From: Solirubrobacter soli DSM 22325
Lineage (GTDB): Bacteria; Actinomycetota; Thermoleophilia; Solirubrobacterales; Solirubrobacteraceae
NCBI RefSeq assembly: GCF_000423665.1
Contig: NZ_KE384069.1
Span: 299,588 to 363,587 of the forward strand
Reading direction: 5' to 3'
DNA length: 64,000 nucleotides
Part shown: positions 47,060 to 64,000 of the stretch, piece after piece
Layout of the letters: every line of letters begins with the position of its first letter
How positions within the stretch are numbered: the first letter of the stretch is position 1
Position numbers and translations under genes: made by a program
The notes under the pieces: generated by a model
The model's input: only the letters and a program-made list of their open reading frames with translations
The model's database searches: none
Told to the model about the DNA's origin: nothing

Positions 47060-47454
47060 ACCCGGACCGCGCGGCCGTCGAGGGCGCGGCGCTGGGCCAG
47101 CTGGCGTGCGAGCTGCCGGGCGGTGGGCTGCTGATCACCGCGTCGCGGCTGGTCGAGTTCGGCGCGCGGGCGGCGATCCTGTACGCCCCGGGCCTCTTCC
47201 GCCTGGACTTCACGCCACGCGAGGAGACGCTCGGGCTCTACCCGAAGGCGTTCGTCGAGGACGCCGAGTGGCGCGCGAACGAGCAGACCTGGGACGGCTA
47301 CCGCGATCCCGCGGGCCCGGCCCCGATCGAGCTGATGGGGATCTTCGGCTCGATCGGGCTCCAGGCGTGGATCCACGTGCTCTCATTCACGGAACGGGAC
47401 GCCTTGGCCACGCACTTCGTGGCCAAGGCGGAGATCCGTTCTACGGCGCCGTAG
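47032..47454 (+). CDS. Conserved-looking small protein of unknown function
   Basis: A 140-residue protein starting at GTG 47032 behind a GGAGG 4 nt upstream, overlapping the methyltransferase gene by 28 nt. It reads MDRTALELLNPDRAAVEGAA, later LYAPGLFRLDFTPREETLGL and IELMGIFGSIGLQAWIHVLS. It is mixed alpha/beta by eye, with no signal or membrane segment. The family is not recognised. The 3' end includes a 12-bp hairpin, and its stop falls on a palindrome shared with the convergent rhamnosidase gene. Confidence 0.6.
   Translation: MDRTALELLNPDRAAVEGAALGQLACELPGGGLLITASRLVEFGARAAILYAPGLFRLDFTPREETLGLYPKAFVEDAEWRANEQTWDGYRDPAGPAPIELMGIFGSIGLQAWIHVLSFTERDALATHFVAKAEIRSTAP
47401..47429 (-). terminator. 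Perfect 12-bp hairpin inside a coding end; likely rhamnosidase terminator
   Basis: GCCTTGGCCACG and its exact complement CGTGGCCAAGGC flank the loop CACTT. It is inside the 140-residue gene on the plus strand but begins 11 nt after the rhamnosidase stop on the minus strand, the position of an intrinsic terminator. No U-tract. Confidence 0.5.
47441..47454. other. 14-bp palindrome formed by two overlapping stop regions
   Basis: CTACGGCGCCGTAG is a perfect palindrome. The plus-strand gene and the minus-strand rhamnosidase both end Thr-Ala-Pro-stop on it, so each stop codon lies at one edge. Confidence 0.8.
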
Positions 47455-50400
47455 TGCTCAGTGTGAAGGTGAGCGTCTTGGCGTAGCTGCCGGTGCGTAG
47501 CGCCTCGTTGGCACCGATGCTCTGCGTGGCGGCGAGCGTCAGCGGGTCGTTGCTGATCGGGGCGGCCCAGCTCTTGAGCGGGGTCGGGTTGCTCGCGCCG
47601 CTCACCGGCTTGCCCTCGATCTGCAGCGGCTGCGCGAGGGCGAAGCTGCCGTTGACGAGGCGACCCGTGGCGGTGGCGCTCGGGTCGTGGACCGTGAGTG
47701 TGGCATCGCCGGCGGTACTCGTGACGACGCCGGTGAGCGTTGCCGCGTAGTCCTTGGCGAGCCCGGGGGTGAAGGCGCCGAAGCTCGCCGGGTTCAGGCT
47801 CAGCGCGAGCGTCGCCGGGACGTTGCCGCTGACCGGCGTGTCCACGCTCGTGGCATCGACCGTCGCCGCCAGGAAGCGATACGAGCCGCTGCCGACCTCG
47901 TAGACCGCGTCGCCGTTCGTCGTGCCCTTGTAGGTCACGCCGGGCTGGGTGTTGGCGGGCTTGCCGGACTCGAGTGCCTGCTGTCCGTCGGCGAGCGGGA
48001 CGTGGACCTCGGCGCGCGTGTTGACCGGCAGGTCGACGTCGATGCTCAGGCGGCCGGCGGCGTCACGGCTCCAGCTCGTCTTCGCCTCGCCGTAGCTGGT
48101 CTTGACGGCGCTTCCGGCGCTCCTCAATTCCCCGACGGCGGGGTCGACCAACTGCGTCTTGTAGCCCGGGTCCTTGGGAGCGAGGCCGCCGACGTCGTCG
48201 TAGAGCCAGTCGCCGATCGAGCCGAGCCCGTAGTGGTTGAACGAGTTCATCCCGGCGTCCTGGAGCGAGCCGTCCGGGCGGATGCCGTCCCAGCGCTCCC
48301 AGATCGTCGTCCCGCCACGGCTGAGCATGTAGCCCCAGCTCGGGTAGGAGTCCTGGGTGAGGATCTTGTAGGCGAGGTCGCCGCGGCCTCCGTCCTGCAG
48401 GACATTGAGCAGGAACGGGGTGCCGAGGAAGCCGGTGCTCAGGTGGTTCCCGCGGCCGCTGACATCGAGCGCCAGGCGGTCGAAGGCCTGCTGCTCGAGG
48501 TTGTCCGGGACGAGGCCGAACTTGAGCGCGAGCACGTAGCTGGTCTGGCTGCCGGAGCCGACGGTGCCGTCGGCACGCACCCAGCGGTTCACGAACGCGC
48601 TCTTGATCTGGCTGTAGAGCGATGCATACGTGGCGGCGTCCTCGTCCTTGCCGAGCGCTTGCGCGGTCTGGCGGACGATGTCGGTGCTGTAGGCGAAGAA
48701 CGCGGTGCCGATGAAGTCCAGCGGCGTCGAGCCGTCCGGCGCCAGCCAGTCGCCGTAGCCCTGGTTGGGGCGGATGAGGTTGGAGCTGTTGGCCTTCAGG
48801 TACGCGATCCACTTCGTCATCGCGTCGTAGTTGGCGGTCAGGATGCGCGGGTCGCCGTAGCGGCGGTAGAGCGCCCACGGCAGCACGGTGCCGGCATCGC
48901 CCCAGCCCGCCGTGCCCTCGCCGCAGCAGGTGACGGGGGCGACGTCCGGGAAGGCGCCGTTGGTGTTCTGGGAGTCGCGGAGCGTCTGCAGCCATTGCCC
49001 GAGGTAGTTCGAGGCGTCCTCGTTGAACGCTCCGGTCGAGGCGAACGCCTGGATGTCACCCGTCCAGCCGAGGCGCTCGTCGCGCTGGCTGGCATCGCTC
49101 GGGACGCCGAGGAAGTTCGAGTGCTGGCCCCAGCGGATCGCGGACTGGATGCTGTTGACCAGGGCGTTGGAGGACGTGAACGTGCCGTAGTCCGGCAAGT
49201 CGGAGCTGACGACGCGGCCCTCGAGGCTGTCGACGGTCCCGCCGGTCACCTCCACGTAGCGGAAGCCGTGGTAGGTGAAGCGCGGTTCGTAGGTCTCGGT
49301 GCCGCTTCCTCGGAGCGTGTAGGTGTCGGTCTGCTGCGCGGAGCGGAGGTTGGTCGTGTAGAGCGTGCCGTCGCCGTTGAGGAGCTCGCCGAAGCGCAGC
49401 CGGAGCTTCGTCCCGGCGGCGCCGTGGGTCGTGATCTTCGCCCAGCCGGCGAAGTTCTGGCCGAGGTCATAGATCGTCGTGCCGGCGTTCGGGTGGGTGA
49501 CGGCCTTGAGCTGGAGCGTGTCGATCACGCGGATCGGCGGCGCCTGGCTGGGCTCGACCGCCATCGTCTCGTTGCGCTCGACGGCGCTGGGCCATTGCGC
49601 ATTGAACCCCGGCTGGTCCCAGCCGGGCTTGTCCGCGCGGGCGTCGTAGGTCTCGCCGTCGTAGATGCCGGTGGTCTGCAGGCCGCCGCGGCCGACCTGC
49701 CACGTGCCGTCGGTGGCGATGCGGGTGGAGGTGCCGTCCGCGTACGTGATCTTCAGTTGCGCGAGCAGCGCGGGGTTCGTGCCCCACTTCTTCCCGCCCT
49801 GCAGGCGGGTGCTGTACCAGCCGTCGCCGAGGATCGCGCCGATCGCGTTGTCGCCCTGCTTGACCAGGCTCGTGACGTCGTAGGTCTGTGACGGCACGCG
49901 CTTGGAGTACTCCGTCCAGCCCGGTGCCAGGACGGCGTCGCCGACCTTGGTGCCGTTGATGTGGACCTCGTACATGCCGAGCGCGGAGACGTACAGGCGG
50001 GCACTCGCGATCTGCTTCGCGGCGCTGAAGTCCTTGCGCAGGTACGGGCTGGGCTGGGGCGGGAGGGAAACGTTCGAGCCCCACGGGCCGCTGCCGTACG
50101 TGGCGAGCTCGCGCGCGGGCGTCCACGCGTTGTCATCGAACGCGGGCTGCTCCCAGCCGGCGGGTCCGGTGGTGCTCGTCTTCCAGGAGTTGTTCGTGTC
50201 GAAGGTCGCGCTGTCGGTCTTCAGGCGGGCGATGAAGCCGCCCGGCGTCTGCGCGCCGTTCTGATTGAGGCGGTTCTTGACCTGGACCGCGATCGTGTTC
50301 GCGCCCGGCTTGAGCAGGCTCGTGACATCGAGCTGGATCGCCTTCTGCCAGGCGTTCTCGTCGGCGTCGCGGGTGGCCTTGGTGTCGATCACCTGGGTGC

Positions 50401-51004
50401 CATTGACGAAGATCGCGGCTTCGTCGTCGACCGTGAACAGCAGGCGGGCGTCCTGCGGCGCGTTCGCGAGGGTGAAGGTGGAGCGCAGGTAGCGCGTCAG
50501 CGCCGGCATGTTGTTGACGGCGTCGTCGTTCGTGTACCAGATCCACTTGTCGCCGCTGAAGTTCAGCGTGTCGGCGGGTGCGGCGATCCACTTCGCGGTC
50601 CAGTCCGCGCGCTGCAGCAGGCCGGTCTCGACGGTCGCGGGCGCGCTATAGGCGGAAGGCTGGCCCGTCTCGTCCCACGCGCGGACCTTCCACGTGTACG
50701 CGGTGCCGGAGTCCAGTGCGGGCCCGCCGTAGGGCACGTTCGCCGAGGCGGTCGAGTGCACCTCGCCGCTGTCCCAGATGTCACTCCCGTCCTTGGAGAC
50801 CACGACCTGGTAGGCGGACTGCTCGCGGCCGCGGCCGTCGCCGTGGAGCGTCCAGGCGAACGAGGGCCGCGCGTCTCCCAGGCCCAGGGGGTTGGTTTCA
50901 CGGTCCGCGGTGAGACCGGTGACGGTCAGCGGAGCGGCCGCGGCCGTGGACGGCACGACGAGCGCAGCGACCAGCGCCGCGCCGACGAGTGCGCGTGAGA
51001 ACAA
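47441..51004 (-). CDS. Secreted GH78 alpha-L-rhamnosidase
   Basis: An 1187-residue exported glycosidase. The start is TTG 51004 with GGAGGAG about 6 nt upstream, followed by a signal peptide ending near STAAAAP. N-terminal beta-domains include the typical WTAKWIAAP and LYVSALGMYEVHINGTKVGD. The (alpha/alpha)6 catalytic region has RDERLGWTGD (about 640, acid residues) and TTIWERWDG (about 900, Glu), both hallmarks of GH78. Residues about 1068-1187 are the C-terminal domain shared with the phosphatase and the giant protein (GAFTPGLAKDY to TFTLSTTAP). It removes terminal rhamnose from plant or microbial glycans outside the cell. Confidence 0.94.
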   Translation of the reverse strand: MFSRALVGAALVAALVVPSTAAAAPLTVTGLTADRETNPLGLGDARPSFAWTLHGDGRGREQSAYQVVVSKDGSDIWDSGEVHSTASANVPYGGPALDSGTAYTWKVRAWDETGQPSAYSAPATVETGLLQRADWTAKWIAAPADTLNFSGDKWIWYTNDDAVNNMPALTRYLRSTFTLANAPQDARLLFTVDDEAAIFVNGTQVIDTKATRDADENAWQKAIQLDVTSLLKPGANTIAVQVKNRLNQNGAQTPGGFIARLKTDSATFDTNNSWKTSTTGPAGWEQPAFDDNAWTPARELATYGSGPWGSNVSLPPQPSPYLRKDFSAAKQIASARLYVSALGMYEVHINGTKVGDAVLAPGWTEYSKRVPSQTYDVTSLVKQGDNAIGAILGDGWYSTRLQGGKKWGTNPALLAQLKITYADGTSTRIATDGTWQVGRGGLQTTGIYDGETYDARADKPGWDQPGFNAQWPSAVERNETMAVEPSQAPPIRVIDTLQLKAVTHPNAGTTIYDLGQNFAGWAKITTHGAAGTKLRLRFGELLNGDGTLYTTNLRSAQQTDTYTLRGSGTETYEPRFTYHGFRYVEVTGGTVDSLEGRVVSSDLPDYGTFTSSNALVNSIQSAIRWGQHSNFLGVPSDASQRDERLGWTGDIQAFASTGAFNEDASNYLGQWLQTLRDSQNTNGAFPDVAPVTCCGEGTAGWGDAGTVLPWALYRRYGDPRILTANYDAMTKWIAYLKANSSNLIRPNQGYGDWLAPDGSTPLDFIGTAFFAYSTDIVRQTAQALGKDEDAATYASLYSQIKSAFVNRWVRADGTVGSGSQTSYVLALKFGLVPDNLEQQAFDRLALDVSGRGNHLSTGFLGTPFLLNVLQDGGRGDLAYKILTQDSYPSWGYMLSRGGTTIWERWDGIRPDGSLQDAGMNSFNHYGLGSIGDWLYDDVGGLAPKDPGYKTQLVDPAVGELRSAGSAVKTSYGEAKTSWSRDAAGRLSIDVDLPVNTRAEVHVPLADGQQALESGKPANTQPGVTYKGTTNGDAVYEVGSGSYRFLAATVDATSVDTPVSGNVPATLALSLNPASFGAFTPGLAKDYAATLTGVVTSTAGDATLTVHDPSATATGRLVNGSFALAQPLQIEGKPVSGASNPTPLKSWAAPISNDPLTLAATQSIGANEALRTGSYAKTLTFTLSTTAP

Positions 51005-51907: not shown

Positions 51908-52789
51908 GTGGACCGGGACCGCATCGAACGCCGCGACTTCCCCACCGGCCGCCGCGGCTACGACCCGGCGGCGGTGGACGAGCACCTCCGCCGCGTCGCC
52001 GACGAGTTCGAGGCGCACGTCCAGGCGCCCGCCCCGTCCCTCGCCGCGAGCACGTCCGAACAGGTCCGCCTGATCCTCGAGGCGGCCGAACGCGGCGCCG
52101 CCGACATGCGTGCCGCCGCCGGCGCCGAGGCCTCCGGCCACGTCACCCGCGTGCAGGACGCCGCCGACGGCATGCTCGCAAAGCTCAACGCGCTCGAGGC
52201 CGAGCTCAACCGCCTCGTCGGCGCGCTGCGCGAGTCGGGCGAGCGCCTCGTCGCCGGCCTCAACGACCTCCAGGAGCAGGCCACCTCGCTCCCCACCGCC
52301 GCCGACACTCCCGCGACGCCCGCACCCGCCGCCGACACGCCGGCCGCGCCCGCCGACGTCGCGCCGCCGCCCGCCGACGTCGCGCCACCGCCCGCCGACG
52401 TCGCGCCACCGCCCGCCGACGTCGCGCCGCCGCCCGCCGACGTCGCGCCGGCGCGCGCCACGCCTGCGGCCGACACTCCCGCCGCGCCCGCCGGCGACTC
52501 GCCGCCGCCGGCCGACGACCCGCCCGCGCCCGCCGGCGACGCGTCTCTCCACGACTCGCCGCCCCTCTCCGCGCCCGACGCGCCCGACTGGCCCGTCCCG
52601 GCGGCCGACACGCTGTTTCCCGAGGAGCCGCAGCCCGAGCCCGAAGACGCGGGCGCGCGCCTCATCGCCCTCAACATGGCCCTCGCCGGCAGTCCACGCA
52701 AGGACACGCGCGCGTACCTCGCCGAGCACTTCGACCTCCCCGATCTCGAGGCGCTCCTCGACGACGTCTATGCGCGGGCCGGCGGATGA
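51908..52789 (+). CDS. DivIVA-domain-like protein with Pro/Ala repeat linker
   Basis: A 293-residue protein. The first 50 residues (IERRDFPTGRRGYDPAAVDE) resemble the membrane-curvature-sensing DivIVA N-domain (FxxxxRGYDxxxVD). A predicted coiled coil (about 55-130) follows, then a disordered linker with 4.7 copies of ADVAPPP encoded by a 21-bp tandem repeat. The C-terminal 50 residues (LIALNMALAGSPRKDTRAYL) form a small helical module of unknown function. DivIVA relatives organise poles and septa; the exact role is unknown. GTG start 51908; the stop overlaps the carboxypeptidase ATG. Confidence 0.75.
   Translation: MDRDRIERRDFPTGRRGYDPAAVDEHLRRVADEFEAHVQAPAPSLAASTSEQVRLILEAAERGAADMRAAAGAEASGHVTRVQDAADGMLAKLNALEAELNRLVGALRESGERLVAGLNDLQEQATSLPTAADTPATPAPAADTPAAPADVAPPPADVAPPPADVAPPPADVAPPPADVAPARATPAADTPAAPAGDSPPPADDPPAPAGDASLHDSPPLSAPDAPDWPVPAADTLFPEEPQPEPEDAGARLIALNMALAGSPRKDTRAYLAEHFDLPDLEALLDDVYARAGG
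52352..52449 (+). repeat. 21-bp tandem repeat, about 4.7 copies
   Basis: Unit GCCGACGTCGCGCCNCCGCC plus C, repeated in frame from 52352 and encoding ADVAPPP. Copies differ only at one third-codon position, so expansion is recent. It is coding sequence, not CRISPR. Confidence 0.85.
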
Positions 52790-54450: not shown

Positions 54451-57400
54451 ATGCGGGGAGACCGGAGGGTGCGTGTGGCGATCGCCGCTGCGCTGTCGGC
54501 GGGCGCGCTACTCGCGACCGCGGGCGCTGCGCAGGCACAGCGCCCGGCGAACCTGGGCGAAGGTGCGCCCGTAGGCCAGAGCGGCGTTCAGCTCTACAAC
54601 TTCAGGGATTACCTGAGCGGAGGAACCGGAGAGATCCTCTGTCCGGCGTCACCGACGCCGCCGACGCCGTACTGCGTACCGACGCTGCCGGCCAACAACG
54701 TCAACGCCCGCCTGGAGCGGCTGTTCGCGTTCCTGCAGGCGCAGGGCATCAAGAACGTCGAGCTCTACGGCTATCCGGGCAACCCGTTCCCGAGCGGCTC
54801 GAGCCCGCAGGGCAACCGGCAGGGCCTGCTGGACCTGCGCGCGCTCGGCGACAAGTACGGCCTCCGCTTCCCCGCCCGTCACGGCAGCCTCAGCGAGAGC
54901 ACCTGGGACGGGGAGATCGCGGCCGCGAAGATCCTCGGTCAGGAGATGGTCGGCGAGGGCGGCACCGGTGGTGCCGGCAGCCTCGGCAACCTCTCACAGA
55001 CGCTGGCGACCGCGGCCCAGCTGAACAAGCTCGGCAAGCGCTCGGTCGAGGCCGGCGTCGGCCCCGCGTACTTCCACAACCACAACAGCGAGTTCTCCAC
55101 CCGCTTCAACGACTCCAACGGCCAGCTCAAGAGCGCGTGGGAGATCGTGATGGACAACACGGACCCGCGCTACGTCGTGGGGCAGATCGACATCGGCTGG
55201 GCCGTGTGCGGTGCCTCGGGTCACGCGACGCCGTCGGATCCGGCGGTCGGCGCGACCTACGTGAACCAGATGATCCAGAAGTTCGGTCGCCGGGTCATCT
55301 CGTTCCACGTCAAGGACATGGCCGCGGGCGGCATCAAGCCCGACTGCGGCGACGGCGATCAGCGCACGATCGGCAAGGGCGTCATCAACTTCGCCCCGCT
55401 CTTCACGTCCGCCAAGGGCAAGACGAAGTACTACTTCGGCGAGCGCGACCCCGTCGGGCTCGGCGGGGCGACGAACTTCAACCCGTTCACGAACGCCGCC
55501 GAGGGCGCGGCGGCGATGAAGGCCGACCCGGCTCCGTCGCTGAAGGCCTTCCCGCAGCTGTTCTCCTCGGTGCCGAAGGGCACGCCCGCGTCGGCGAACC
55601 AGCAGCCGGTCAAGATCACGAATGACGGCGACGCGCCGCTCGTGATCGCAGGCGGCGCCAACGCGATCCAGATCGAGGCCGACGCCGCGGACGGCGGGGC
55701 CGCCACGGCCGCGGACTTCGCCGTCGTGAGCGAGAACTGCCGCGGCAAGTCGCTCGCCCCCAACGCGAGCTGCACGATCAACGTCGGCTTCAAGCCGACC
55801 CGCACCAACTACACGTCCGTGGCCCGGCTCGTCATCGACTCCAACAGCGACGACGCCGTCGAGCGGGTCCTGCTCACCGGCACTCAGACGCCGCCGAAGG
55901 TGCTCGTGTTCAGCGGTCCGTCGGACGCGACGATCGACGCCGGCGTCAACGCGATCAAGGACCTCGGCACCGCCAACGACTTCGCGGTCGACACCGGCTC
56001 CGACGCATCCGTCTTCACCGCGGCCAACCTCGCGAACTATCGCGCCGTCGTGTTCCTCAACAACGCGGGCGACCGCCTGAACGCGGCGCAGGAGACCGCC
56101 CTGCAGGGCTACATCCAGGGCGGCGGCGGGTTCGTCGGCATCGGCTCGGCGGCCGAGGCCGAACCGAGCAACAGCTTCATCACCGGCCTGATCGGCGCCC
56201 GCCCGGACGCGGCGAGCCCGACCACCGCCTCCGACCAGGTCGTCGTGTTCGGCGACCGCGTCCATCCCGCCACCAAGGGCCTGCCGCTCGAGTGGACGCG
56301 CAACGACATCTACTACCGCTGGACCACCCGCCCCACGGGCACGGTCCACACGCTCGCCCGCCACCGCGCCGTCGGCGCGGCGGCCGGTGACGGCACCACG
56401 ACGGGCGGCACCGACTGGCCGATCTCCTGGTGCCGCGACTACCAGGGCGGCCGTTCCTTCTACACCGGGATGGGCCGCACCGCGGCCGGCTACGGCCAGG
56501 CCGACCTCAAGAAGCACCTGCTGGGCGCGATCCAGTGGGCCGGCGGCCTCGTTCGCGGCGGCTGCAAGGCCACGATCATGTCCAACTACTCGACCGAACG
56601 CCTCGTCAGCGCCGCGTCCGGTGACCTGACCGCCAGCGGTGAGTCGCACGGCGTGTCGCTGGCCAACAACGGCTGGGCGATCTACATCGGCCGTGCCGAC
56701 TGCCGCACGAACGCCGAGCGGGGGAAGATGGTCGGGCTCGCGTCGCAGGCGCAGATCCTGGACTTCGCCAACCGCAACGTCGGCGTCGGCTGCGGCACGA
56801 TCCACATCCTCGATCCGAAGGCCGTCAACGGCACCGTCAACTCCGGGGTGACGCAGGCGGCGGTGCTGCCCGTCTACGGCGATCGCGGCGGCGGAAACGA
56901 GGTCAACGGCAAGATCGAGACGGGCCTGCTCGGCGTCGCCGCGGCGCCGGACTTCGCCACGACGGGGCACATCTACCTGCAGTACGTCCCGACGTTCAAC
57001 CCGGACAACCCGGTGCATCCCGGCATGGCCGACGGCGACCAGCGCCGGATCACGAAGATGGCCCAGGCGCGCATCTCACGCTTCACGGTCAATCTCAACA
57101 CCAAGAAGATCGACCTCGACTCCGAGGTCACGATCTTCAACTACGACCTGCAGATCTGGAGCTGCTGCCATCAGGGCGGCGGCATGGCCTTCGACTCCGA
57201 GGGCAACCTCTATGTGACGGTCGGCGACGACAACTCGTCGCAGTCGACCAACGGCTACTCGGGCAACTACCAGCCGCAGCGCTGCCCGACGGGCGACCCG
57301 ACGCAGGCGACCAACACGCACTGCGGAGCCAACAACGTCGCGTTCAACGACGCGCGCAGAACCGCCGGCAACACCAACGATTACAACGGCAAGATGCTGC

Positions 57401-60400
57401 GCTTCAACCCGATCGACAACCTGGCGGACGGGTCGAAGCCGGCGGTCGGCGTGGGCACCACCTACACGCTGCCGACCGCGAGCTCGCCGAACGGTCCGAA
57501 CCTGTTCGACGGCACCGAGGGCGGCGGCGGCAAGGCCAAGCCCGAGATCTACGCGATGGGTCTGCGCAATCCGTCGCGGATGACGATCGATCCGGTCACC
57601 GACGTGCCGTATGCCGCGTGGGTGGGCCCGGATGCCGGCTCGCCGTCGGCGACGCAGGGTCCGTCGACGTATGAGACCGCCACGCAGCTGCCGACGGCCG
57701 GCAACTATGGCTGGCCGTACTGCATGGGCAACAAGCAGGCCTACCGCGATCGCATCGCGGACGGCTCGCTGCGCACGACCAACACCACCGGCTATGTGAC
57801 CGGCGGTCCGGCGAGCGCGCCCACGAACGGTTGGTATGACTGCAACAACCTCGTCAACGACTCGACCAACAACACCGGTCTGGTCACGCTGCCGCACGTC
57901 ACGGGCACCGGCAAGGACGCGGGCACGGCGCATTCCAACAACGTCTGGTACAGCCGCGGCAACCCGAACAACAGCAACGGCTGCCCGCAGTTCCCGCGCG
58001 AGCAGGGCGCCAACAACGCTCCCAACTACGGCTCGACGTCGCCGACGCAGCTGTGTCCGTACCTGACCGCCTCCGGCGCGACGGTGTTCACGGGCCCGGT
58101 CTACCGGTACAAGGAGGGCGCGGACAACTCCGCGCGCTGGCCGAAGTACTGGGACGGCCGCTGGTTCCTGAACGACTTCGGCAACAACAGCGCCAAGCAC
58201 GCGCTGCTGCTCGATCCGGCGTCCGACCAGGACGGCTCCCAGCCGATCTACGCGGACTCCTTCCGCGGTTCGCTCCCCTGGGGCGCGAACTACATGGACT
58301 CCAAGTTCGGTCCGGACGGCGCCCTCTACGTGCAGGTCTACGAGGGCTTCTTCACGACCGGCTCGGGCGCCGGCCTGTACCGCTTCAAGTACACCGGCGG
58401 CCCGGACACTCCCGGCCCGGACCTGCAGTGGACCTCGACGGCCACGGCGCGGACGGTCCAGTTCTCGGCCGGCGCCTCAGGCGGCGTCGCCTACGAGTGG
58501 GACTTCGGGGACGGTGAGACGGCCGCGGGGACCAACCCGCTGCACGCCTACGCCGCGCCCGGCGCCTACACGGCGAAGCTGACGGTGGTCTATGCCGACG
58601 GTGAGCGCGCGACGCAGACGTTGAGCGTCCCGGTCTCCGACGACACGGCCGCCCCGACCACGACGGTCCAGCTCAACGACGCCACGCCGGCCGCCACCTA
58701 CACGGCCGCCGTGAAGGTCGGCCTGCGGGCCAACGACGGCACCGGCGGCGCCGGCGTCGAGTGGACGGAGTACCGGATCGACGGCGGGTCCTGGACGCGC
58801 AAGGACAACACGGCCAACGCCTCCCCGTTCGTGACCGAGTTCACGGTCGGCGACGAGGGCTACCACACGGTCGAGTTCCGCTCCCGCGACAAGGCGGGCA
58901 ACGTCGAGTCGCCGATCGGGACGGTCACGTTCGCCATCGACCTCCCGGGCGGTGGCAACGGCGGCTGCTCGGCGCAGTCGGATCAGTTCAACGGCTCGGC
59001 CCTGGACCCGAAGTGGCAGATCGTCAACCCGCTCGCCGGCAACCCGCCGACCGTGGGCAGCGGGCGTCTGACGATGCCGATGGTGCAGGGCGACCTGTAC
59101 ACGAACACGGGCAACGCGCAGGCGCTGATGCAGGCCGTGCCGAGTGGCTCGTGGGTCGCGACCGCCAAGGTCGCCCACGCGACGATCAACGCCGACGGCC
59201 GGGCGGCCGGCCTGGCGCTGATCAACACGCTCAACCCGAACTACCTGCTCAAGACGACGGTCCAGTACAAGACCGACACCGATCCGAACACGGCCGGCAA
59301 CCAGCCGGGCAAGTGGACGGAGCGCGTGCTGACGGCCAACAACGCGTCGGTCGTCATCCCGCCGGCCACGGTCCCGTGGCCCAACTCCGGGGCGCTCAAC
59401 ACGAGCGGTGAGTTCATCTGGGTGCGCTTCGTCTACGACGACGCGGCCAAGACGATCACGACCTGGTCCTCGACCAACGGCACGACGTTCAACTCGTTCG
59501 GCGCGCCGATCTCGGTCACGCAGTACCTGTCCCAGCCGGGCGGTCTGCGGGTCGGCGTGTTCACCAAGCACGACGCGGGCGGCACCGACGACATCGCGCA
59601 GTTCGACGCGTTCAACGTGGTCTCGTCCTCGGATCCGCAGATCCCGGGCGACGACTGCGGCGGCGACGGCTCGTGCCCGCAGACGGACGAGTTCACCGGC
59701 TCCACGATCGACCCGAAGTGGTCGCTGGTGAACCCGATCACGGGCGCGAACCCGACGGTGGCCAACGGCCGCCTGGTCGTCCCGCTCCGCCAGGCCGACC
59801 TGTACGCGGCGACGGGCAACGCCCAGCTGCTGCTGCAGCAGGCCCCCGCGACGGGCTCGTGGACCGCGACCGCGAAGGTCGTGCACTCGGGTCTGACCGC
59901 GGATGGCGAGGCGCTCGGGCTCGGGCTGATCAACAGCTTCAGCCCGAACTACTTCGTCAAGGCGACGGTGCAGTACAAGAACGACACCGATCCGAACACC
60001 TCCGGCAACCAGCCGGGCAAGTGGGCGGAGCGGGTGCTGACCGCCAACGGGTCGGCGATCACGCTGCCCCCGGCGACCGTGCCGTACCCGAACTCCGGTG
60101 CGCTCAGCACCTCCGGGGACTACATCTGGGTTCGGCTCGCCTACGACGACGTGGCCAAGACCCTGAACACGGCGACGTCGACGGACGGGGTCACGTTCAC
60201 GACGTTCGGCGCGCCGATCTCGACGACGCAGTACCTCAACCAGCCGGGCGGCTATCGCATCGGCGTGTTCGGCAAGCGCGACGGCAACTCGGCGAACAAG
60301 AACGTCGAGCTCGAGTCGTTCACGCTCGAGACGGCGGACTGCGGCGGCACCGGCGGTGACACGACGGCGCCGAGCACGACGAACGTGCTCGACCCGACGA

Positions 60401-62691
60401 CGCCCAACGGTGACTCCGGCTGGTACAAGGGCGACGTCAAGGTCACGCTCAACGCGACCGACAACAACGGCGGCTCGGGGGTCGACAAGACCGAGTACCG
60501 CACCGCCGGCGCCTCGACCTGGACGGCCTACACGGCCCCGTTCACGGTCAGCACGGCCGGGACGACCACGATCGAGTACCGCTCGACGGACAAGAAGGGC
60601 AACGTCGAGTCGACGCGGACGGTGACGTTCAAGATCGACAAGACGGGCCCGGCGACCTCGGCCAAGCTCAACGGCTCCGATCCGAAGGCGACCTACACCG
60701 GCGACGTCGCGGTCGACCTCGACGCGACGGACGCGACCTCGGGCGTGAAGGCGACCGAGATCCGCGTCGACGGCGGCGACTGGAAGCCGTACGTGGAGGA
60801 GGAGACGATCCTCAACACGGAGGCCGATCTCGCCAAGTGGGCGCAGGCCGGTCCGGGCAAGCTCACCTGGAACGCCGCTGACGGCGGCTTCTTCCGCCCG
60901 TCCGGCGGGCTGGGGATGCCGTGGTATCCGGTCAAGGACTACGGCGACTTCGTGATGAAGTTCCAGTGGCGTGACTCGGCCACGGGTACGAACGGGAACG
61001 GTGGCGCGTTCGTGCGCTTCCCGAACCCGGCCGAGGCCGTGACGCGGACCGCCGCGAACCGGTTCCCGTGCCAGGTCGGTTCGGCCCAGACCGATCAGGC
61101 CTGGGTCGCGATCTACTGCGGTCACGAGATCCAGATCAACGACTACCAGTCCGACGCGCAGAAGACGGGCTCGATCTACAACTTCTCGCCGCTCAACGCC
61201 ACGCAGGCGAAGGTCCAGCCGCGCGGTACCTGGGTGGATTACGAGATCAAGGTCGTCGGTCAGACCTACACGATCAGCCGCAACGGGGAGGTCCTGCAGA
61301 CCTTCCAGAACACGCCGGGCAAGACGTCCTCCCGGTCCGGTGACCCGTCGACGACGGATCGCCAGTTCACGCGCGGCTACATCGGCCTCCAGAACCACTC
61401 GGATGCCGACGTCATCGACTACAAGAACGTCCGCGTGCTCTCGCTCGACGCCGGCTCGGTCCAGGGCCCGGTGAAGGTGACGGGCAACGGCGCGCACACG
61501 GTCGAGTACCGCTCGACGGACGTGGCGGGCAACGTGGAGGCGACCAAGAAGGTCGACTTCACCATCGGCACCGCGGACACCGTCGCGCCGGTGACGACCA
61601 GCGCGCTCACCCCGGCCTCGCCGGGTGCGGGCGGGACCTACAACGGTCCGGTCAGCGTCCAGCTGTCGGCCACCGATCCGGCGCAGGCCGGCGGGGGCGG
61701 GGGCGCGCCGAAGACGGTCGACGCCAACGCGTTCGCCGACCACTGGGAGCCGAACGCGCTGACCGCGACGGTCGGCGACACCGTGCGCTGGAACTTCCCG
61801 ACGGCGACGGCGGGCACGGTCCACGACGTGTGGATCATCAAGCCCGGCGAGTCGGCGACCAGCGACGGCACGCGCCTGAGCAACAACGACACGGGCAACA
61901 TCGTCATCCCGGGCGGCCCGCCGGTGACCTCGGTCGTCGACGCGGCCGGGACGTACACGTTCATGTGCAAGATCCACTCGCACAAGGGCACGGACGGCTG
62001 GGAGGGCATGGTCGGCAAGGTCACCGTCACCGCGGGTGGCGGCTCGACCCCGGGCTCGGGCGTGGACTACACCGAGTACCGCGTCAACACGGGCGGGGCG
62101 ACCGGCGAGTGGGTCCGCAAGGACAACACGAGCTCGGCGAGCCCGTTCGTGACGACCGTCGGCGTGTCCGCGGTCGGTTCGCACGTGGTCGAGTACCGCT
62201 CCAAGGACAAGGCCGGCAACACCGAGGCCACCAAGTCGGTGGCGTTCTCGATCCAGGCGCCGGGGGCGGGTGACTCCGAGGACGCCGACGTCAACGCGGA
62301 CGTGCCGCTGGTGATGTCGCTCGAGTTCACCGGGGCGGCGACCGTCGGCCCGCTGGTCCCGGGCGTCGCGAAGGACTACACCGCGTCGCTGGCGGCGAAG
62401 GTGACGTCCAGCTCGCCCACCACGGCGTTGAGCGCGGTGGATCAGAGCACGAACGCTCCGGGCCGCCTGGTCAACGGCACCACGGCGCTCCCGCAGCCGC
62501 TGCAGGCCGCCGCCGGTGGGGCGTTCGCGCCGATCGGCGGCACGCCCACTGTCCTGAAGTCCTGGACCGGGCCGCTGGCCAACGACCCCGTGACGGTCGA
62601 GTTCAAGCAGCCTGTCGCTGCCACCGACAAGCTGGTCGCGGGTCACTACAGCAAGCGGATCACGTTCACGCTGTCGGCGACCACGCCGTAG
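54451..62691 (+). CDS. Giant secreted multi-domain sugar-oxidation protein (epimerase-ThuA-PQQ dehydrogenase-DUF1080-cupredoxin)
   Basis: A 2746-residue exported protein; signal peptide ends near AAQAQRP. In order: sugar phosphate isomerase/epimerase-type TIM barrel (about 40-370; GVQLYNFRDYL, FHNHNSEF, SFHVKDM); HYDIN/Spd-2-like beta domain (385-480); ThuA-like domain (481-705; KVLVFSGPSD, GGGGFVGIGS); PQQ sugar dehydrogenase propeller (705-1320; GGMAFDSEGNLYVTVGDDN, AMGLRNPSRM, GNYGWPYC); PKD (1324-1400; YEWDFGDG); Ig-like OmpL47-type repeat; two related concanavalin-like domains (1507-1727, 1741-1965); Ig-like repeats, two of them split by insertions of a DUF1080 domain (2116-2335) and a cupredoxin (2417-2530; Cu ligands in VHDVW and FMCKIHSH); shared C-terminal domain (2617-2746). 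Domain calls are by motif; the pathway role is inferred. Confidence 0.88.
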   Translation: MRGDRRVRVAIAAALSAGALLATAGAAQAQRPANLGEGAPVGQSGVQLYNFRDYLSGGTGEILCPASPTPPTPYCVPTLPANNVNARLERLFAFLQAQGIKNVELYGYPGNPFPSGSSPQGNRQGLLDLRALGDKYGLRFPARHGSLSESTWDGEIAAAKILGQEMVGEGGTGGAGSLGNLSQTLATAAQLNKLGKRSVEAGVGPAYFHNHNSEFSTRFNDSNGQLKSAWEIVMDNTDPRYVVGQIDIGWAVCGASGHATPSDPAVGATYVNQMIQKFGRRVISFHVKDMAAGGIKPDCGDGDQRTIGKGVINFAPLFTSAKGKTKYYFGERDPVGLGGATNFNPFTNAAEGAAAMKADPAPSLKAFPQLFSSVPKGTPASANQQPVKITNDGDAPLVIAGGANAIQIEADAADGGAATAADFAVVSENCRGKSLAPNASCTINVGFKPTRTNYTSVARLVIDSNSDDAVERVLLTGTQTPPKVLVFSGPSDATIDAGVNAIKDLGTANDFAVDTGSDASVFTAANLANYRAVVFLNNAGDRLNAAQETALQGYIQGGGGFVGIGSAAEAEPSNSFITGLIGARPDAASPTTASDQVVVFGDRVHPATKGLPLEWTRNDIYYRWTTRPTGTVHTLARHRAVGAAAGDGTTTGGTDWPISWCRDYQGGRSFYTGMGRTAAGYGQADLKKHLLGAIQWAGGLVRGGCKATIMSNYSTERLVSAASGDLTASGESHGVSLANNGWAIYIGRADCRTNAERGKMVGLASQAQILDFANRNVGVGCGTIHILDPKAVNGTVNSGVTQAAVLPVYGDRGGGNEVNGKIETGLLGVAAAPDFATTGHIYLQYVPTFNPDNPVHPGMADGDQRRITKMAQARISRFTVNLNTKKIDLDSEVTIFNYDLQIWSCCHQGGGMAFDSEGNLYVTVGDDNSSQSTNGYSGNYQPQRCPTGDPTQATNTHCGANNVAFNDARRTAGNTNDYNGKMLRFNPIDNLADGSKPAVGVGTTYTLPTASSPNGPNLFDGTEGGGGKAKPEIYAMGLRNPSRMTIDPVTDVPYAAWVGPDAGSPSATQGPSTYETATQLPTAGNYGWPYCMGNKQAYRDRIADGSLRTTNTTGYVTGGPASAPTNGWYDCNNLVNDSTNNTGLVTLPHVTGTGKDAGTAHSNNVWYSRGNPNNSNGCPQFPREQGANNAPNYGSTSPTQLCPYLTASGATVFTGPVYRYKEGADNSARWPKYWDGRWFLNDFGNNSAKHALLLDPASDQDGSQPIYADSFRGSLPWGANYMDSKFGPDGALYVQVYEGFFTTGSGAGLYRFKYTGGPDTPGPDLQWTSTATARTVQFSAGASGGVAYEWDFGDGETAAGTNPLHAYAAPGAYTAKLTVVYADGERATQTLSVPVSDDTAAPTTTVQLNDATPAATYTAAVKVGLRANDGTGGAGVEWTEYRIDGGSWTRKDNTANASPFVTEFTVGDEGYHTVEFRSRDKAGNVESPIGTVTFAIDLPGGGNGGCSAQSDQFNGSALDPKWQIVNPLAGNPPTVGSGRLTMPMVQGDLYTNTGNAQALMQAVPSGSWVATAKVAHATINADGRAAGLALINTLNPNYLLKTTVQYKTDTDPNTAGNQPGKWTERVLTANNASVVIPPATVPWPNSGALNTSGEFIWVRFVYDDAAKTITTWSSTNGTTFNSFGAPISVTQYLSQPGGLRVGVFTKHDAGGTDDIAQFDAFNVVSSSDPQIPGDDCGGDGSCPQTDEFTGSTIDPKWSLVNPITGANPTVANGRLVVPLRQADLYAATGNAQLLLQQAPATGSWTATAKVVHSGLTADGEALGLGLINSFSPNYFVKATVQYKNDTDPNTSGNQPGKWAERVLTANGSAITLPPATVPYPNSGALSTSGDYIWVRLAYDDVAKTLNTATSTDGVTFTTFGAPISTTQYLNQPGGYRIGVFGKRDGNSANKNVELESFTLETADCGGTGGDTTAPSTTNVLDPTTPNGDSGWYKGDVKVTLNATDNNGGSGVDKTEYRTAGASTWTAYTAPFTVSTAGTTTIEYRSTDKKGNVESTRTVTFKIDKTGPATSAKLNGSDPKATYTGDVAVDLDATDATSGVKATEIRVDGGDWKPYVEEETILNTEADLAKWAQAGPGKLTWNAADGGFFRPSGGLGMPWYPVKDYGDFVMKFQWRDSATGTNGNGGAFVRFPNPAEAVTRTAANRFPCQVGSAQTDQAWVAIYCGHEIQINDYQSDAQKTGSIYNFSPLNATQAKVQPRGTWVDYEIKVVGQTYTISRNGEVLQTFQNTPGKTSSRSGDPSTTDRQFTRGYIGLQNHSDADVIDYKNVRVLSLDAGSVQGPVKVTGNGAHTVEYRSTDVAGNVEATKKVDFTIGTADTVAPVTTSALTPASPGAGGTYNGPVSVQLSATDPAQAGGGGGAPKTVDANAFADHWEPNALTATVGDTVRWNFPTATAGTVHDVWIIKPGESATSDGTRLSNNDTGNIVIPGGPPVTSVVDAAGTYTFMCKIHSHKGTDGWEGMVGKVTVTAGGGSTPGSGVDYTEYRVNTGGATGEWVRKDNTSSASPFVTTVGVSAVGSHVVEYRSKDKAGNTEATKSVAFSIQAPGAGDSEDADVNADVPLVMSLEFTGAATVGPLVPGVAKDYTASLAAKVTSSSPTTALSAVDQSTNAPGRLVNGTTALPQPLQAAAGGAFAPIGGTPTVLKSWTGPLANDPVTVEFKQPVAATDKLVAGHYSKRITFTLSATTP

Positions 62692-62740: not shown

Positions 62741-62760
62741 CGTGCGTCTTCGGACGCACG
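62741..62760 (+). terminator. Second hairpin with UUCG tetraloop
   Basis: CGTGCGTC-TTCG-GACGCACG directly abuts the first hairpin. An 8-bp stem closed by C(UUCG)G is exceptionally stable. Its last two bases overlap the SOS box of uvrA. Confidence 0.7.
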
Positions 62761-62772
62761 AACACGCGTTCG
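62759..62772. promoter_or_regulatory. LexA (SOS) box of uvrA
   Basis: CGAACACGCGTTCG fits the Gram-positive/actinobacterial SOS box CGAACRNRYGTTYG at every position and is a near-complete palindrome. It ends 41 nt before the uvrA ATG and overlaps the -35 region of the -10 TAGACT, so LexA would block the promoter. Confidence 0.85.
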
Positions 62773-62794
62773 ACTGTTCCGTCCGCGCTGGTCA

Positions 62795-62800
62795 TAGACT
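62795..62800 (+). promoter_or_regulatory. -10 box (TAGACT) of uvrA
   Basis: TANNNT ending 13 nt before the uvrA ATG, with GAGAGG in the gap as a weak ribosome-binding site. Same hexamer as upstream of the giant gene. Confidence 0.5.
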
Positions 62801-62813
62801 GAGAGGCAGACTT

Positions 62814-64000
62814 ATGTCCTCTCGTCAGAACTCCATCGTCGTCTCGGGCGCCCGGGAGCACAACCTCAAGGACGTCACCGTCGAGCTGCCGCGTGACTCG
62901 CTCGTCGTCATCACCGGGCTGTCCGGCTCCGGCAAGTCCTCGCTCGCGTTCGACACGATCTACGCCGAGGGTCAGCGCCGCTACGTCGAGTCGCTGAGCG
63001 CGTACGCGCGCCAATTCCTGGGGCAGATGGACAAGCCGGATGTGGACTCCATCGAGGGTCTGTCGCCGGCGATCTCGATCGATCAGAAGACGACGTCGCG
63101 CAACCCGCGGTCGACGGTCGGCACGGTCACGGAGATCTACGACTACCTGCGTCTGCTGTGGGCGCGGATCGGCAAGCCGCACTGCTTCAACTGCGGGCGG
63201 CCGATCGCGGCGCAGTCGGCGGAGCAGATCATCGACCAGATCATGGGCCTGGAGGAAGGCACGCGGTTCATGGTCATGGCGCCGATCGTGCGCGGCCGCA
63301 AGGGCGAGTACGGCAAGCAGCTGGCCGAGCTGCGCGGCGAGGGCTTCACGCGCGTCAAGGTGGACGGCGAGCTGCGCCAGCTCGAGGAGGAGATCGTCCT
63401 CGACAAGCGCTACAAGCACGACATCTCGGTGGTCGTGGACCGTCTGGTGATGCGGCCGGAGCTGCGCAAGCGCCTGGCGGATTCCGTGGAGACCGCGGTC
63501 GCGCTGGCCGACGGCATCCTCGAGGTGGAGACCGTTCCTCGCGACGGTGAGCCGGAGATCTTCACGTACTCCGAGCGCTTCGCCTGCCTGCATTGCGGGA
63601 TCTCCATGCCCGAGCTCGAGCCGCGCTCGTTCTCGTTCAACGCGCCGCATGGCGCCTGCCCGCGCTGCACCGGGCTGGGCTCGATGATGGAGATCGACCC
63701 CGAGCTCGTGGTGCCGGACCCGTCGCTCTCGATCAACGAAGGCGCGATCTTGCCGTGGTCCTCAGGGGCGACGGGCTACTACGAGCAGATCGCGCAGGCG
63801 ATCGCCGAGCGCTACGAGGTCGACGTCGACTCGGCGTGGGAGGACCTCCCGGCCGAGGTCCAGAACCTCTTCCTGTACGGCACCAACGGCGACAAGCTGT
63901 ACGTGACGTACCGCAACCGGATGGGTCGCAAGCGGTCGTACATGACGACCTTCGAGGGCATCGTCCCGAACCTCGAGCGCCGCTACAAGGAGACCGACTC
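62814..64000 (+). CDS. uvrA: Excinuclease ABC subunit A, N-terminal part (cut by window edge)
   Basis: The frame is open from ATG 62814 to the window end, giving about 395 residues of a protein usually near 950. It begins [20 protein letters not shown], with Walker [15 protein letters not shown], the UvrA signature [16 protein letters not shown], and the first zinc-binding pairs CFNCG and CLHCG with CPRC following. UvrA recognises DNA lesions and loads UvrB, whose gene lies upstream at 44 kb. An SOS box and -10 box precede it, so it should be DNA-damage inducible. Confidence 0.97.

What the first reader, a model, noticed from the sequence alone, without database searches (positions are those of the whole stretch)
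54451..62691. One secreted polypeptide carrying a whole 3-keto-sugar-type oxidation and cleavage toolkit
Seen: a 2746-residue exported protein containing an isomerase/epimerase barrel, ThuA-like domain, PQQ sugar dehydrogenase propeller, two concanavalin-like domains, a DUF1080 domain and a cupredoxin. Known: DUF1080 proteins include 3-keto-disaccharide hydrolases, and isomerase/epimerase-like and ThuA-like proteins occur with them in 3-keto-glycoside degradation; PQQ dehydrogenases oxidise sugars and can pass electrons to small redox proteins. Inference: the chain could oxidise a glycan, hand electrons to its own cupredoxin, and cleave or rearrange the keto-sugar without releasing it. The built-in electron acceptor is the most unusual part.
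Basis: partly seen in the sequence, partly recalled or inferred. Interest (0 to 1): 0.88.

Follow-up and report, generated by a model that had tools for sequence, protein, structure and literature searches.

The report
Surface-tagged giant keto-sugar enzyme chain
A soil bacterium makes one giant exported protein that strings together several sugar-processing domains and a copper electron carrier and ends in an uncatalogued tail domain; the domains are real, but the idea that they pass one sugar along a relay is unproven and partly contradicted.

Summary
Confirmed: 54451-62691 (+) is one 2746-residue exported protein of a Solirubrobacter species. Four sister genomes carry the same order, one of them 86% identical throughout. 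Order: TIM barrel, Ig-like, ThuA, GSDH propeller, PKD, OmpL47, two ConA-like, OmpL47, DUF1080, cupredoxin, new C-terminal domain; DUF1080 and cupredoxin each sit inside a split OmpL47 repeat.

Corrections: the barrel resembles 3-keto-beta-glucopyranoside-1,2-lyases. The cupredoxin keeps its copper ligands, and cupredoxin genes cluster with GSDH genes (10 of 26 within 10 kb; 1.45 expected). The dehydrogenase claim is weakest: Arg-x-Arg is lost, PqqC is absent here and in 5 of 6 sister genomes, and sGDH oxidises C1. A self-contained C3-oxidation relay is not supported; keto-glycoside cleavage near the cell surface remains my best reading.

Most novel: the last 140 residues match no Pfam/NCBIfam family, look pilin-like and end at least 150 ORFs here, exported by a crude test in a sample of 40; abundant only in Solirubrobacter in the samples searched. 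Probably a sorting or surface tag.

The parts
54451..54537 (+). Signal peptide (residues 1-29, approximate)
   Evidence: basic start, hydrophobic stretch and Ala-rich end in the translation; read by eye, no predictor run
54568..55566 (+). TIM barrel, 3-keto-glycoside 1,2-lyase-like (residues 40-372)
   Evidence: 8tcs/8tcd/8tct at 3e-10 to 5e-10 with the family profile; model pTM 0.78; Foldseek top hits 3obe (generic isomerase/epimerase) and the 3-keto-beta-glucopyranoside-1,2-lyases 8tct, 8tcd
55567..55893 (+). Ig-like spacer that also follows the barrel in stand-alone barrel proteins (residues 373-481)
   Evidence: weak Cep192_D4/DUF1573 matches, E 0.01-0.09, below cut-off; barrel-spacer pairs in L054, L057, L058, L065
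55894..56550 (+). ThuA domain (residues 482-700)
   Evidence: PF06283 2.2e-50; 4jqs 6e-22 and ThuA-like 4e5v 2e-8
56593..58386 (+). GSDH-type beta-propeller (residues 715-1312)
   Evidence: PF07995 5.9e-16; 2ism 2e-13, 3a9g 1e-9, sGDH 1c9u 1e-5; residues
58399..58644 (+). PKD domain (residues 1317-1398)
   Evidence: PF18911 1.6e-13
58645..58926 (+). OmpL47-type Ig-like repeat 1, intact
   Evidence: NF047446, five stretches in the protein; alignment
58942..59670 (+). ConA-like domain 1
   Evidence: PF17851 GH43_C2 3.4e-5, 24.1 bits against a cut-off of 22.7
59674..60348 (+). ConA-like domain 2
   Evidence: 60% identical to domain 1; no Pfam match of its own
60352..60642 (+). OmpL47-type repeat 2, intact
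   Evidence: best NF047446 stretch 1992-2062
60646..60792 (+). OmpL47-type repeat 3, first half
   Evidence: first and second halves put together align end to end with intact repeat 2 (score 140; intact 1 against intact 2: 165; boundaries within 5 residues of those given; no shuffled control)
60802..61452 (+). DUF1080 / 3-keto-disaccharide hydrolase domain nested in repeat 3
   Evidence: PF06439 2e-25; 3imm 2e-13 and 8rr2 '3-keto-disaccharide hydrolase domain-containing protein' 1.5e-4
61456..61584 (+). OmpL47-type repeat 3, second half
61588..61722 (+). OmpL47-type repeat 4, first half
   Evidence: first and second halves put together align with repeat 1 (score 203)
61723..62040 (+). Plastocyanin-type cupredoxin nested in repeat 4
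   Evidence: PF00127 1e-7; plastocyanins 2e-7; H, C, H, M ligands present
62041..62268 (+). OmpL47-type repeat 4, second half
62272..62691 (+). New C-terminal domain (CTD, residues 2608-2746, and stop)
   Evidence: at least 150 copies in the genome; no Pfam or NCBIfam family; pLDDT 92.7; pilin-like in Foldseek
47441..47887 (-). Second copy of the CTD in the window, at the end of the GH78 alpha-L-rhamnosidase gene 47441-51004
   Evidence: alignment A1, last row; GH78 domains

Best explanation
A secreted multi-enzyme of Solirubrobacter that dismantles glycosides through keto-sugar intermediates at or near the cell surface. Shown: one exported-type chain with a 3-keto-glycoside-1,2-lyase-like barrel, ThuA, a GSDH-type propeller, two ConA-like domains, DUF1080 and a copper-ligand-complete cupredoxin, the last two inserted in OmpL47 repeats, ending in a C-terminal domain that is abundant only in this genus. 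Inferred: the barrel eliminates the aglycone from 3-keto-glycosides and DUF1080 hydrolyses or hydrates keto-disaccharides; the propeller is a redox partner whose electrons, if it is active, go to the cupredoxin; ConA-like and PKD modules bind or space the chain; the CTD keeps it at the surface. The oxidant that makes the 3-keto group is not identified; it may be the propeller with a changed cofactor or specificity, or another enzyme.
For: Nearest solved relatives of the barrel include two named 3-keto-beta-glucopyranoside-1,2-lyases, with HNH, the D of QIDIGW and H-x-K-D kept. DUF1080 is intact against solved members, and that family has a 3-ketotrehalose hydrolase and a periplasmic partner of LacABC (PMC9007349). 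All enzyme-type domains are under purifying selection against S. pratensis (dN/dS GSDH 0.16, barrel 0.21, ThuA 0.22, DUF1080 0.24; cupredoxin 0.46, CTD 0.75). The same parts recur as separate or differently fused proteins: strain CPCC 204708 has a barrel-less 2539-aa chain and a separate 1396-aa barrel chain (L053, L059); near the own-genome barrel-less paralogue of 1862 aa lies a 646-aa barrel-CTD gene (L054); a MAG has the 2063-aa chain followed by a separate cupredoxin-OmpL47 ORF (L072); Haloactinopolyspora has ThuA-GSDH-barrel (L079). Cupredoxin ORFs lie within 10 kb of GSDH ORFs in 10 of 26 cases against 1.45 expected, 3 of them in the same ORF.
Against: No activity can be shown by sequence. 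The propeller lacks the Arg-x-Arg of PQQ enzymes and the host lacks PqqC. Known sGDH acts at C1. DUF1080 also includes an endo-xanthanase/lichenase. Constraint is not special to the enzyme domains: short OmpL47 pieces reach 0.12-0.21 against S. pratensis, and GSDH is 0.37-0.41 against the three other species. The gene has no catabolic neighbours next to it (M32 peptidase upstream, uvrA downstream), and its neighbours were not found beside the related chains. Chains rich in OmpL47, PKD and ConA-like modules may be mainly adhesive.
Confidence: 0.45

Rival explanations
1. One reading: the propeller oxidises a glycan at C3 with PQQ, hands electrons to its own cupredoxin, and barrel and DUF1080 cleave the product within the same chain.
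For: All parts in one chain in five Solirubrobacter genomes; catalytic His and Arg-Asn kept, Gly-Pro aligned with sGDH; cupredoxin-GSDH clustering; an engineered ASD-cytochrome b562 fusion transfers electrons internally (PMC12011955 abstract). CcPDH binds PQQ without the Lys377 and Arg408 of sGDH (PMC6881789), so the lost residues need not be fatal.
Against: Arg-x-Arg lost; no PqqC in 6 of 7 genomes of the genus and no PqqE over cut-off in this one; sGDH oxidises C1; no evidence for channelling.
Confidence: 0.13
2. Order reversed: barrel and DUF1080 free a monosaccharide and the propeller then oxidises its C1 to a lactone, passing electrons to the cupredoxin; the 3-keto group comes from another enzyme.
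For: Known C1 chemistry of sGDH (PMC6881810); His and Arg-Asn kept, Gly-Pro aligned with sGDH; cupredoxin association.
Against: No PF13618 (gluconate 2-dehydrogenase subunit 3) match in the genome; other 3-dehydrogenase families were not searched. The same PQQ problems apply.
Confidence: 0.25
3. The propeller no longer oxidises; it is a glycan-binding or scaffolding propeller, and the cupredoxin serves copper binding or another redox partner.
For: No Arg-x-Arg in any of 21 distinct motifs read, 19 of them from chains that also hold ThuA; a canonical GSDH of the same genome has Arg-Ile-Arg there (L118), though a stricter pattern found nothing in the four canonical loci tried. PqqC missing. Hedgehog-interacting protein is among the weak hits; that it is a non-enzymatic member is recalled.
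Against: The propeller is the best conserved long domain against S. pratensis (93% identity, dN/dS 0.16), though it is ordinary (76-79%, 0.37-0.41) against the three other species. His and Arg-Asn are kept; cupredoxin clustering argues for redox.
Confidence: 0.17

Closest known systems
3-Keto-beta-glucopyranoside-1,2-lyases BT1 (8tct) and AL1 (8tcd, 8tcr)
   Same: TIM barrel; HNHxxEF, the D of the D-x-x-W strand and H-x-K-D shared with the window protein
   Different: The solved chains are 286-289 aa; here the barrel is the N-terminal part of a 2746-aa chain, and identity in the structural alignment is 16-18%
DUF1080 / 3-keto-disaccharide hydrolases (BT2157; Caulobacter CCNA_01705)
   Same: PF06439 domain; CCNA_01705 is predicted to be exported
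   Different: Those are single-domain proteins per PMC9007349; here the domain is inserted in an OmpL47 repeat
Soluble PQQ glucose / aldose sugar dehydrogenases (1c9u, 2ism, 3a9g)
   Same: GSDH profile; catalytic His, Arg-Asn, Gly-Pro and NYGWP motif
   Different: Arg-x-Arg replaced by N-Y-M; host lacks PqqC; fused to ThuA
CcPDH, fungal AA8-AA12-CBM1 (PMC6881789)
   Same: Redox carrier, propeller dehydrogenase and carbohydrate-binding module in one chain
   Different: Heme b instead of copper; PQQ binding proven; no lyase or DUF1080 in the domain scheme seen
Other ThuA and/or GSDH-PKD chains of actinobacteria (L080, L081, L082; own-genome paralogues)
   Same: ThuA and/or GSDH-PKD core
   Different: No barrel at the N-terminus; of the own-genome GSDH ORFs only 3 of 29 hold a cupredoxin
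Chaperone-usher pilins (CfaB, CsuA/B, FimI) and TasA
   Same: Fold similarity of the CTD, Foldseek probability up to 1.00
   Different: TM-scores by query 0.29-0.56 among the 50 listed, with large rmsd; no sequence similarity found; attached to enzymes; no chaperone or usher looked for

Membership tests
3-keto-glycoside 1,2-lyase | TIM barrel with sequence similarity to solved lyases | tested here: met
   8tcd 3.6e-10, 8tct 5e-10; model and Foldseek 5e-13; but 3obe, a generic isomerase/epimerase, ranks first by fold
3-keto-glycoside 1,2-lyase | metal/catalytic residues conserved | tested here: inconclusive
   H170-N-H172, D208, H247, K249, D250 and E292 in 10 of 10 rows, E175 in at least 90%; which of them are catalytic in the lyases was not checked
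3-keto-glycoside 1,2-lyase | eliminates 3-keto-glycosides | not testable with these tools
   needs enzyme assay
PQQ-dependent GSDH/sGDH | GSDH profile | tested here: met
   the propeller fold itself was not modelled
PQQ-dependent GSDH/sGDH | His144, Arg228-Asn229, Gly247-Pro248 equivalents | tested here: met
   CCH, GLRN, TQGP in the window protein; Gly-Pro aligned with sGDH 1c9u and with 3a9g, placed differently against 2ism; residue roles from PMC6881810 passages
PQQ-dependent GSDH/sGDH | Arg-x-Arg near the C-terminus of the propeller (Arg408 of sGDH, PMC6881789; Arg406 recalled) | tested here: not met
   NYMDSKFGPDG against 2ism RLREVQVGPDG; absent in 21 of 21 distinct motifs
PQQ-dependent GSDH/sGDH | PQQ supply in the host | tested here: not met
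   PqqC in 1 of 7 genus genomes, not in this one (none of the 14 control genomes rang, but the S. pratensis hit shows the model works); PqqE best 114 bits against a cut-off of 381 (no control over the cut-off either); uptake from outside not excluded
DUF1080 / 3-keto-disaccharide hydrolase | PF06439 over cut-off | tested here: met
   90.4 against 26.8 bits
DUF1080 / 3-keto-disaccharide hydrolase | catalytic residues and activity | not tested
   the phrase search for the family name found no paper; residues not looked for otherwise
ThuA | PF06283 over cut-off | tested here: met
   172 against 33.4 bits; function of the family not established here
Plastocyanin-type cupredoxin | His, Cys, His, Met copper ligands | tested here: met
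   window copy has all four; first His, Cys and second His in 8 of 8 rows; some rows are cut before the Met
WxL, spore coat U, camelysin and other catalogued surface domains (CTD) | match to a Pfam or NCBIfam model | tested here: not met
   31 CTD copies, E up to 5: unrelated families matched by one or two members each, best E 0.03; HMMER's filters drop most matches above about 0.1
Chaperone-usher pilin (CTD) | incomplete Ig fold filled by a donor strand, chaperone and usher | not tested
   fold similarity only; model coordinates not available

The most novel reading that the evidence does not exclude
The last 140 residues belong to an undescribed export-linked C-terminal domain that Solirubrobacter attaches to some 70 to 150 or more proteins per genome, of unrelated catalytic types, to sort or hold them at the cell surface: an analogue, in actinobacteria, of the type IX secretion C-terminal domain, possibly docking through a pilin-like beta-sandwich. 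This chain would then be a surface-displayed keto-sugar machine, with redox supplied by copper instead of NAD.
Probability: 0.45. Interest if true: 0.82.

Novelty: new variant of a known kind. Interest (0 to 1): 0.6.

Why it matters
If the enzymes act together, it would put the oxidation-elimination route for glycosides (as outlined in PMC13273386) outside the cell onto one polypeptide, with a copper acceptor; that known versions of the route use nicotinamide cofactors is recalled. The CTD gives a direct handle on an open question: how a large-genome group of soil actinobacteria sorts and displays its exported enzymes.

Tried and rejected
Epimerase reading of the barrel: set aside because two of the three closest solved relatives by sequence are named 3-keto-glycoside lyases, though a generic isomerase/epimerase (3obe) ranks first by fold.

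Assembly or frame artefact: rejected by full-length relatives in other assemblies and GC3 of 0.95.

Conserved operon: neighbours in the window are uvrB, prmA, GH78, a HhH-GPD (MutY-like) gene, a DivIVA-like gene, M32 peptidase and uvrA. None of the seven was found beside the related chains at E 1e-20 over 120 aa, apart from CTD matches of GH78 (17 loci, two species often held twice). The flanks held are short for some loci, and L050/L051 are cut by contig ends.

LacABC-type source of 3-keto sugars: PF13618 gave 0 matches in this genome, with the control ringing in Caulobacter and Haloferax; that PF13618 is the LacC-type subunit is recalled.

CTD as WxL, spore coat U or camelysin: no Pfam or NCBIfam match. 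CTD against solved sequences: nothing convincing (best E 0.23). Against viral models: one hit below 0.001, unnamed, TM 0.50.

Limits of my counts. The signal-peptide count is a crude regular expression over the first 25 candidate starts, with no control; one of its 39 hits (L150) is plainly false, leaving 38 of 40 whole ORFs. The carriers were a sample: regions at even ranks 2-80 of the 150; rank 24 is cut by its contig end, and rank 33, which lay in the same fetched stretch, took its place among the 40. The cupredoxin-GSDH test treats the genome as one line, and neighbours on contig C7 are not independent; by clusters it is 6 of 19. The genome is rated 8% contaminated. dS is compressed by GC3 of 0.95. 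In multi-genome searches only the best 7 to 150 candidates per genome were scored. The nested-repeat alignment had no shuffled control.

Literature: the keto-sugar paper I looked up by DOI is not held and a search for PDB codes found only unrelated papers; the phrase '3-keto-disaccharide hydrolase' found none. ThuA with sugar dehydrogenase and PKD domain (at least two of three): 2 papers, seen as a listing, neither on such a fusion by title. Cupredoxin with PQQ, fusion and sugar dehydrogenase terms (at least three of four): 16 papers, 12 listed, seen as a listing; none is about a cupredoxin-GSDH fusion by title. Solirubrobacter with 'C-terminal domain': 6 papers, seen as a listing, none on such a domain by title. 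A ThuA/3-keto/trehalose search gave a listing that I did not follow.

Full report
WHAT IS THERE. The ORF is real and exact: 54451-62691, plus strand, 2746 residues, with a signal-peptide-like start. The window is part of a 9.3-Mb, 50-contig genome whose same-genus relatives are Solirubrobacter in a named collection (contig lengths of L068, L069 and L070 equal those of genomes G003, G005 and G004). Profiles give ThuA (2e-50), DUF1080 (2e-25), GSDH (6e-16), PKD (2e-13) and Copper-bind (2e-6), and OmpL47-type repeats in five stretches. A first ConA-like domain passes the GH43_C2 cut-off; the second is 60% identical to it. The barrel is below Pfam's cut-off alone but clear by profile (3e-10) and by model (pLDDT 74, pTM 0.78).

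NESTED INSERTIONS. DUF1080 and the cupredoxin each interrupt an OmpL47-type repeat. When the two flanking halves are put together in a script, they align end to end with the intact repeats of the same protein (scores 140 and 203, against 165 for the two intact repeats; no shuffled control). The order half-repeat, domain, half-repeat recurs in the other full-order chains, although the S. taibaiensis chain is cut in the last half.

RELATIVES. Of the seven genomes of the genus, five carry the full order with the barrel: this one, S. pratensis (2753 aa, 86% identity), S. phytolaccae (2989 aa), unnamed G002 (3011 aa) and S. taibaiensis (2808 aa, cut by a contig end before the CTD); they differ in having two or three ConA-like domains. 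The other two, G001 and G006, match records of S. deserti CPCC 204708 and Solirubrobacter sp. CPCC 204708 and are probably one strain. They have a barrel-less chain of 2539 aa and, separately, a 1396-aa barrel-ConA-CTD protein (L053 and L059 are from G006). In the window's own genome a second locus has a barrel-less 1862-aa chain near a separate 646-aa barrel-CTD gene (L054). A metagenome-assembled relative (L072) has the 2063-aa ThuA-to-DUF1080 chain followed by an ORF with a cupredoxin (8.8e-6) and an OmpL47 repeat behind what looks like its own signal peptide. Haloactinopolyspora alba has ThuA-GSDH-barrel in a different order (barrel segment match 2.4e-8), and Streptomyces niveiscabiei has GSDH-PKD and ThuA-DUF1080 in two ORFs of one locus (L082). 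In a phylum sample the barrel profile matched 18 of 296 genomes, this one included; outside this genome the longest open frame with a match was 565 aa, with at most 7 candidates scored per genome. So the full order was seen only in Solirubrobacter, while its parts keep meeting.

BARREL. The three best solved relatives by sequence are 8tcs, 8tcd and 8tct. The fold search names 8tct a Bacteroides thetaiotaomicron 3-keto-beta-glucopyranoside-1,2-lyase and 8tcd/8tcr the Alistipes enzyme; they rank second, third and sixth, behind or among generic isomerases/epimerases (3obe first). Shared motifs are HNHxxEF, the D of the D-x-x-W strand and H-x-K-D. PMC13273386 (first of three parts of the text read) describes elimination by such lyases and mentions a B. 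thetaiotaomicron 3-keto-O-glycoside lyase.

DUF1080 AND THUA. PMC9007349 (passages) reports BT2157 as a 3-ketotrehalose hydrolase, THTE_1561 as an endo-xanthanase/lichenase, and proposes a periplasmic DUF1080 protein as partner of LacABC in Caulobacter. So keto-sugar chemistry outside the cytoplasm has precedent, and so do other activities in this family. ThuA is intact by profile; its role was not established here.

PROPELLER. Kept: the His after two Cys, the Arg-Asn pair (GLRN), NYGWP, and Gly-Pro in TQGPSTYE, which the profile aligns with the Gly-Pro of sGDH and 3a9g but not of 2ism. Lost: Arg-x-Arg before GPDG. 2ism has RLREVQVGPDG and the window protein has NYMDSKFGPDG. None of 21 distinct C-terminal motifs has it, 19 of them from chains that also hold ThuA (23 rows printed, two of which are an N-terminal motif of the propeller). 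As a control, a canonical GSDH of the same genome has Arg-Ile-Arg at that place (L118), but a stricter pattern found nothing in the four canonical loci tried, so the control rests on one protein. PMC6881789 (passages) names Arg408 and Lys377 of sGDH in PQQ binding and also shows that fungal CcPDH binds PQQ without them. PMC6881810 (passages) gives C1 as the hydride donor and His144 as base. PqqC was found in 1 of 7 genus genomes, S. pratensis only; the best PqqE match here is 114 bits against a cut-off of 381. A PQQ-made 3-keto sugar is therefore the weakest link. PQQ taken up from other microbes, or another cofactor, is not excluded.

CUPREDOXIN. The window copy has all four type-1 copper ligands; the first His, the Cys and the second His are in 8 of 8 rows, and plastocyanins are the best solved hits (2e-7). 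In this genome 30 Copper-bind matches fall in 26 ORFs and GSDH matches in 29 ORFs. Three ORFs hold both, and 10 of 26 cupredoxin ORFs lie within 10 kb of a GSDH ORF against 1.45 expected; by clusters 6 of 19. That supports a redox partnership, not a proven electron path. A built-in acceptor has a precedent in CcPDH, and an engineered aldose dehydrogenase-cytochrome b562 fusion transfers electrons internally (PMC12011955, abstract).

SELECTION. Against S. pratensis dN/dS is 0.16 for GSDH, 0.21 barrel, 0.22 ThuA, 0.24 DUF1080, 0.46 cupredoxin and 0.75 CTD; two short OmpL47 pieces are as low (0.12, 0.21). Against the three other species DUF1080 (0.23-0.31), ThuA (0.28-0.35) and barrel (0.31-0.37) stay low, while GSDH rises to 0.37-0.41 and the cupredoxin to 0.40-0.93. 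GC3 of 0.95 compresses dS, so only the ranking is worth reading.

THE C-TERMINAL DOMAIN. Residues 2608-2746 match at least 150 places in this genome (150 scored of 234 candidates); all 150 alignments reach the last query residue. In 40 fetched regions (a sample), 43 of 43 ORF hits end within 3 residues of the stop, and 38 or 39 of 40 whole ORFs start with a signal-peptide-like stretch by a crude rule. The 40 carriers match 53 Pfam families, among them ThuA (9 of 40), GSDH (6), CBM6 (4), S15 and M14 peptidases (3 each), amidase (2) and alkaline phosphatase (2). All 7 genus genomes have it, with 68 to 150 matches each, where 150 candidates was the scoring cap. In an 81-genome sample of the family, 13 genomes match: 6 Solirubrobacter and 7 others with 1-3 copies. 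In a phylum sample 4 of 296 genomes match, all of this family. No Pfam or NCBIfam family fits. The model is confident (pLDDT 92.7), and its best PDB matches are chaperone-usher pilins (best E 5.5e-4, probability 1.00, but TM-scores of 0.29-0.56 and large rmsd among the 50 listed), with TasA at rank 30. The last residues, with invariant G, Y, K, L and P in 31 copies, look like an edge strand with a fixed end. An exported-protein sorting or attachment tag is the simplest reading; it is inference.

VERDICT. Observation confirmed; interpretation partly supported. As a multi-enzyme it is a new variant built from known families. The part that may be of a new kind is the tail domain.

Noticed in passing
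62272-62691 (+) and 47441-47887 (-): Uncatalogued C-terminal domain with at least 150 copies in the genome; 40 sampled carriers match 53 Pfam families and look exported; abundant only in Solirubrobacter in the samples searched; pilin-like predicted fold.
   Followed up: yes
47441-51004 (-): GH78 alpha-L-rhamnosidase with N-terminal Ig domain that ends in the same C-terminal domain.
   Followed up: partly
44242-46251 (+) and 62742-63998 (+): uvrB and uvrA lie about 16.5 kb apart with the GH78, MutY-like, M32 peptidase and giant genes between them; these neighbours were not found beside the related chains in the fetched stretches of other species.
   Followed up: partly
51908-52789 (+): DivIVA-like protein (below Pfam cut-off) with a perfect-looking tandem PPPADVA repeat in its middle.
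   Followed up: no
L087 (G003:C1:107829-108506): S. pratensis is the only one of seven Solirubrobacter genomes with a PqqC match, so PQQ supply differs between close relatives that share the propeller.
   Followed up: no
G000:C7:213-230 kb and 328-347 kb (L055, L063): Clusters of ThuA-GSDH, cupredoxin and CTD proteins, including a 2570-aa chain that holds GSDH, OmpL47 repeats and a cupredoxin nested between OmpL47 halves.
   Followed up: partly
L048 and L049, downstream of the giant gene: A second ThuA-GSDH-PKD-CTD gene (1045-1061 aa) follows directly in S. phytolaccae and G002; the G002 copy has Arg in place of the catalytic His.
   Followed up: no
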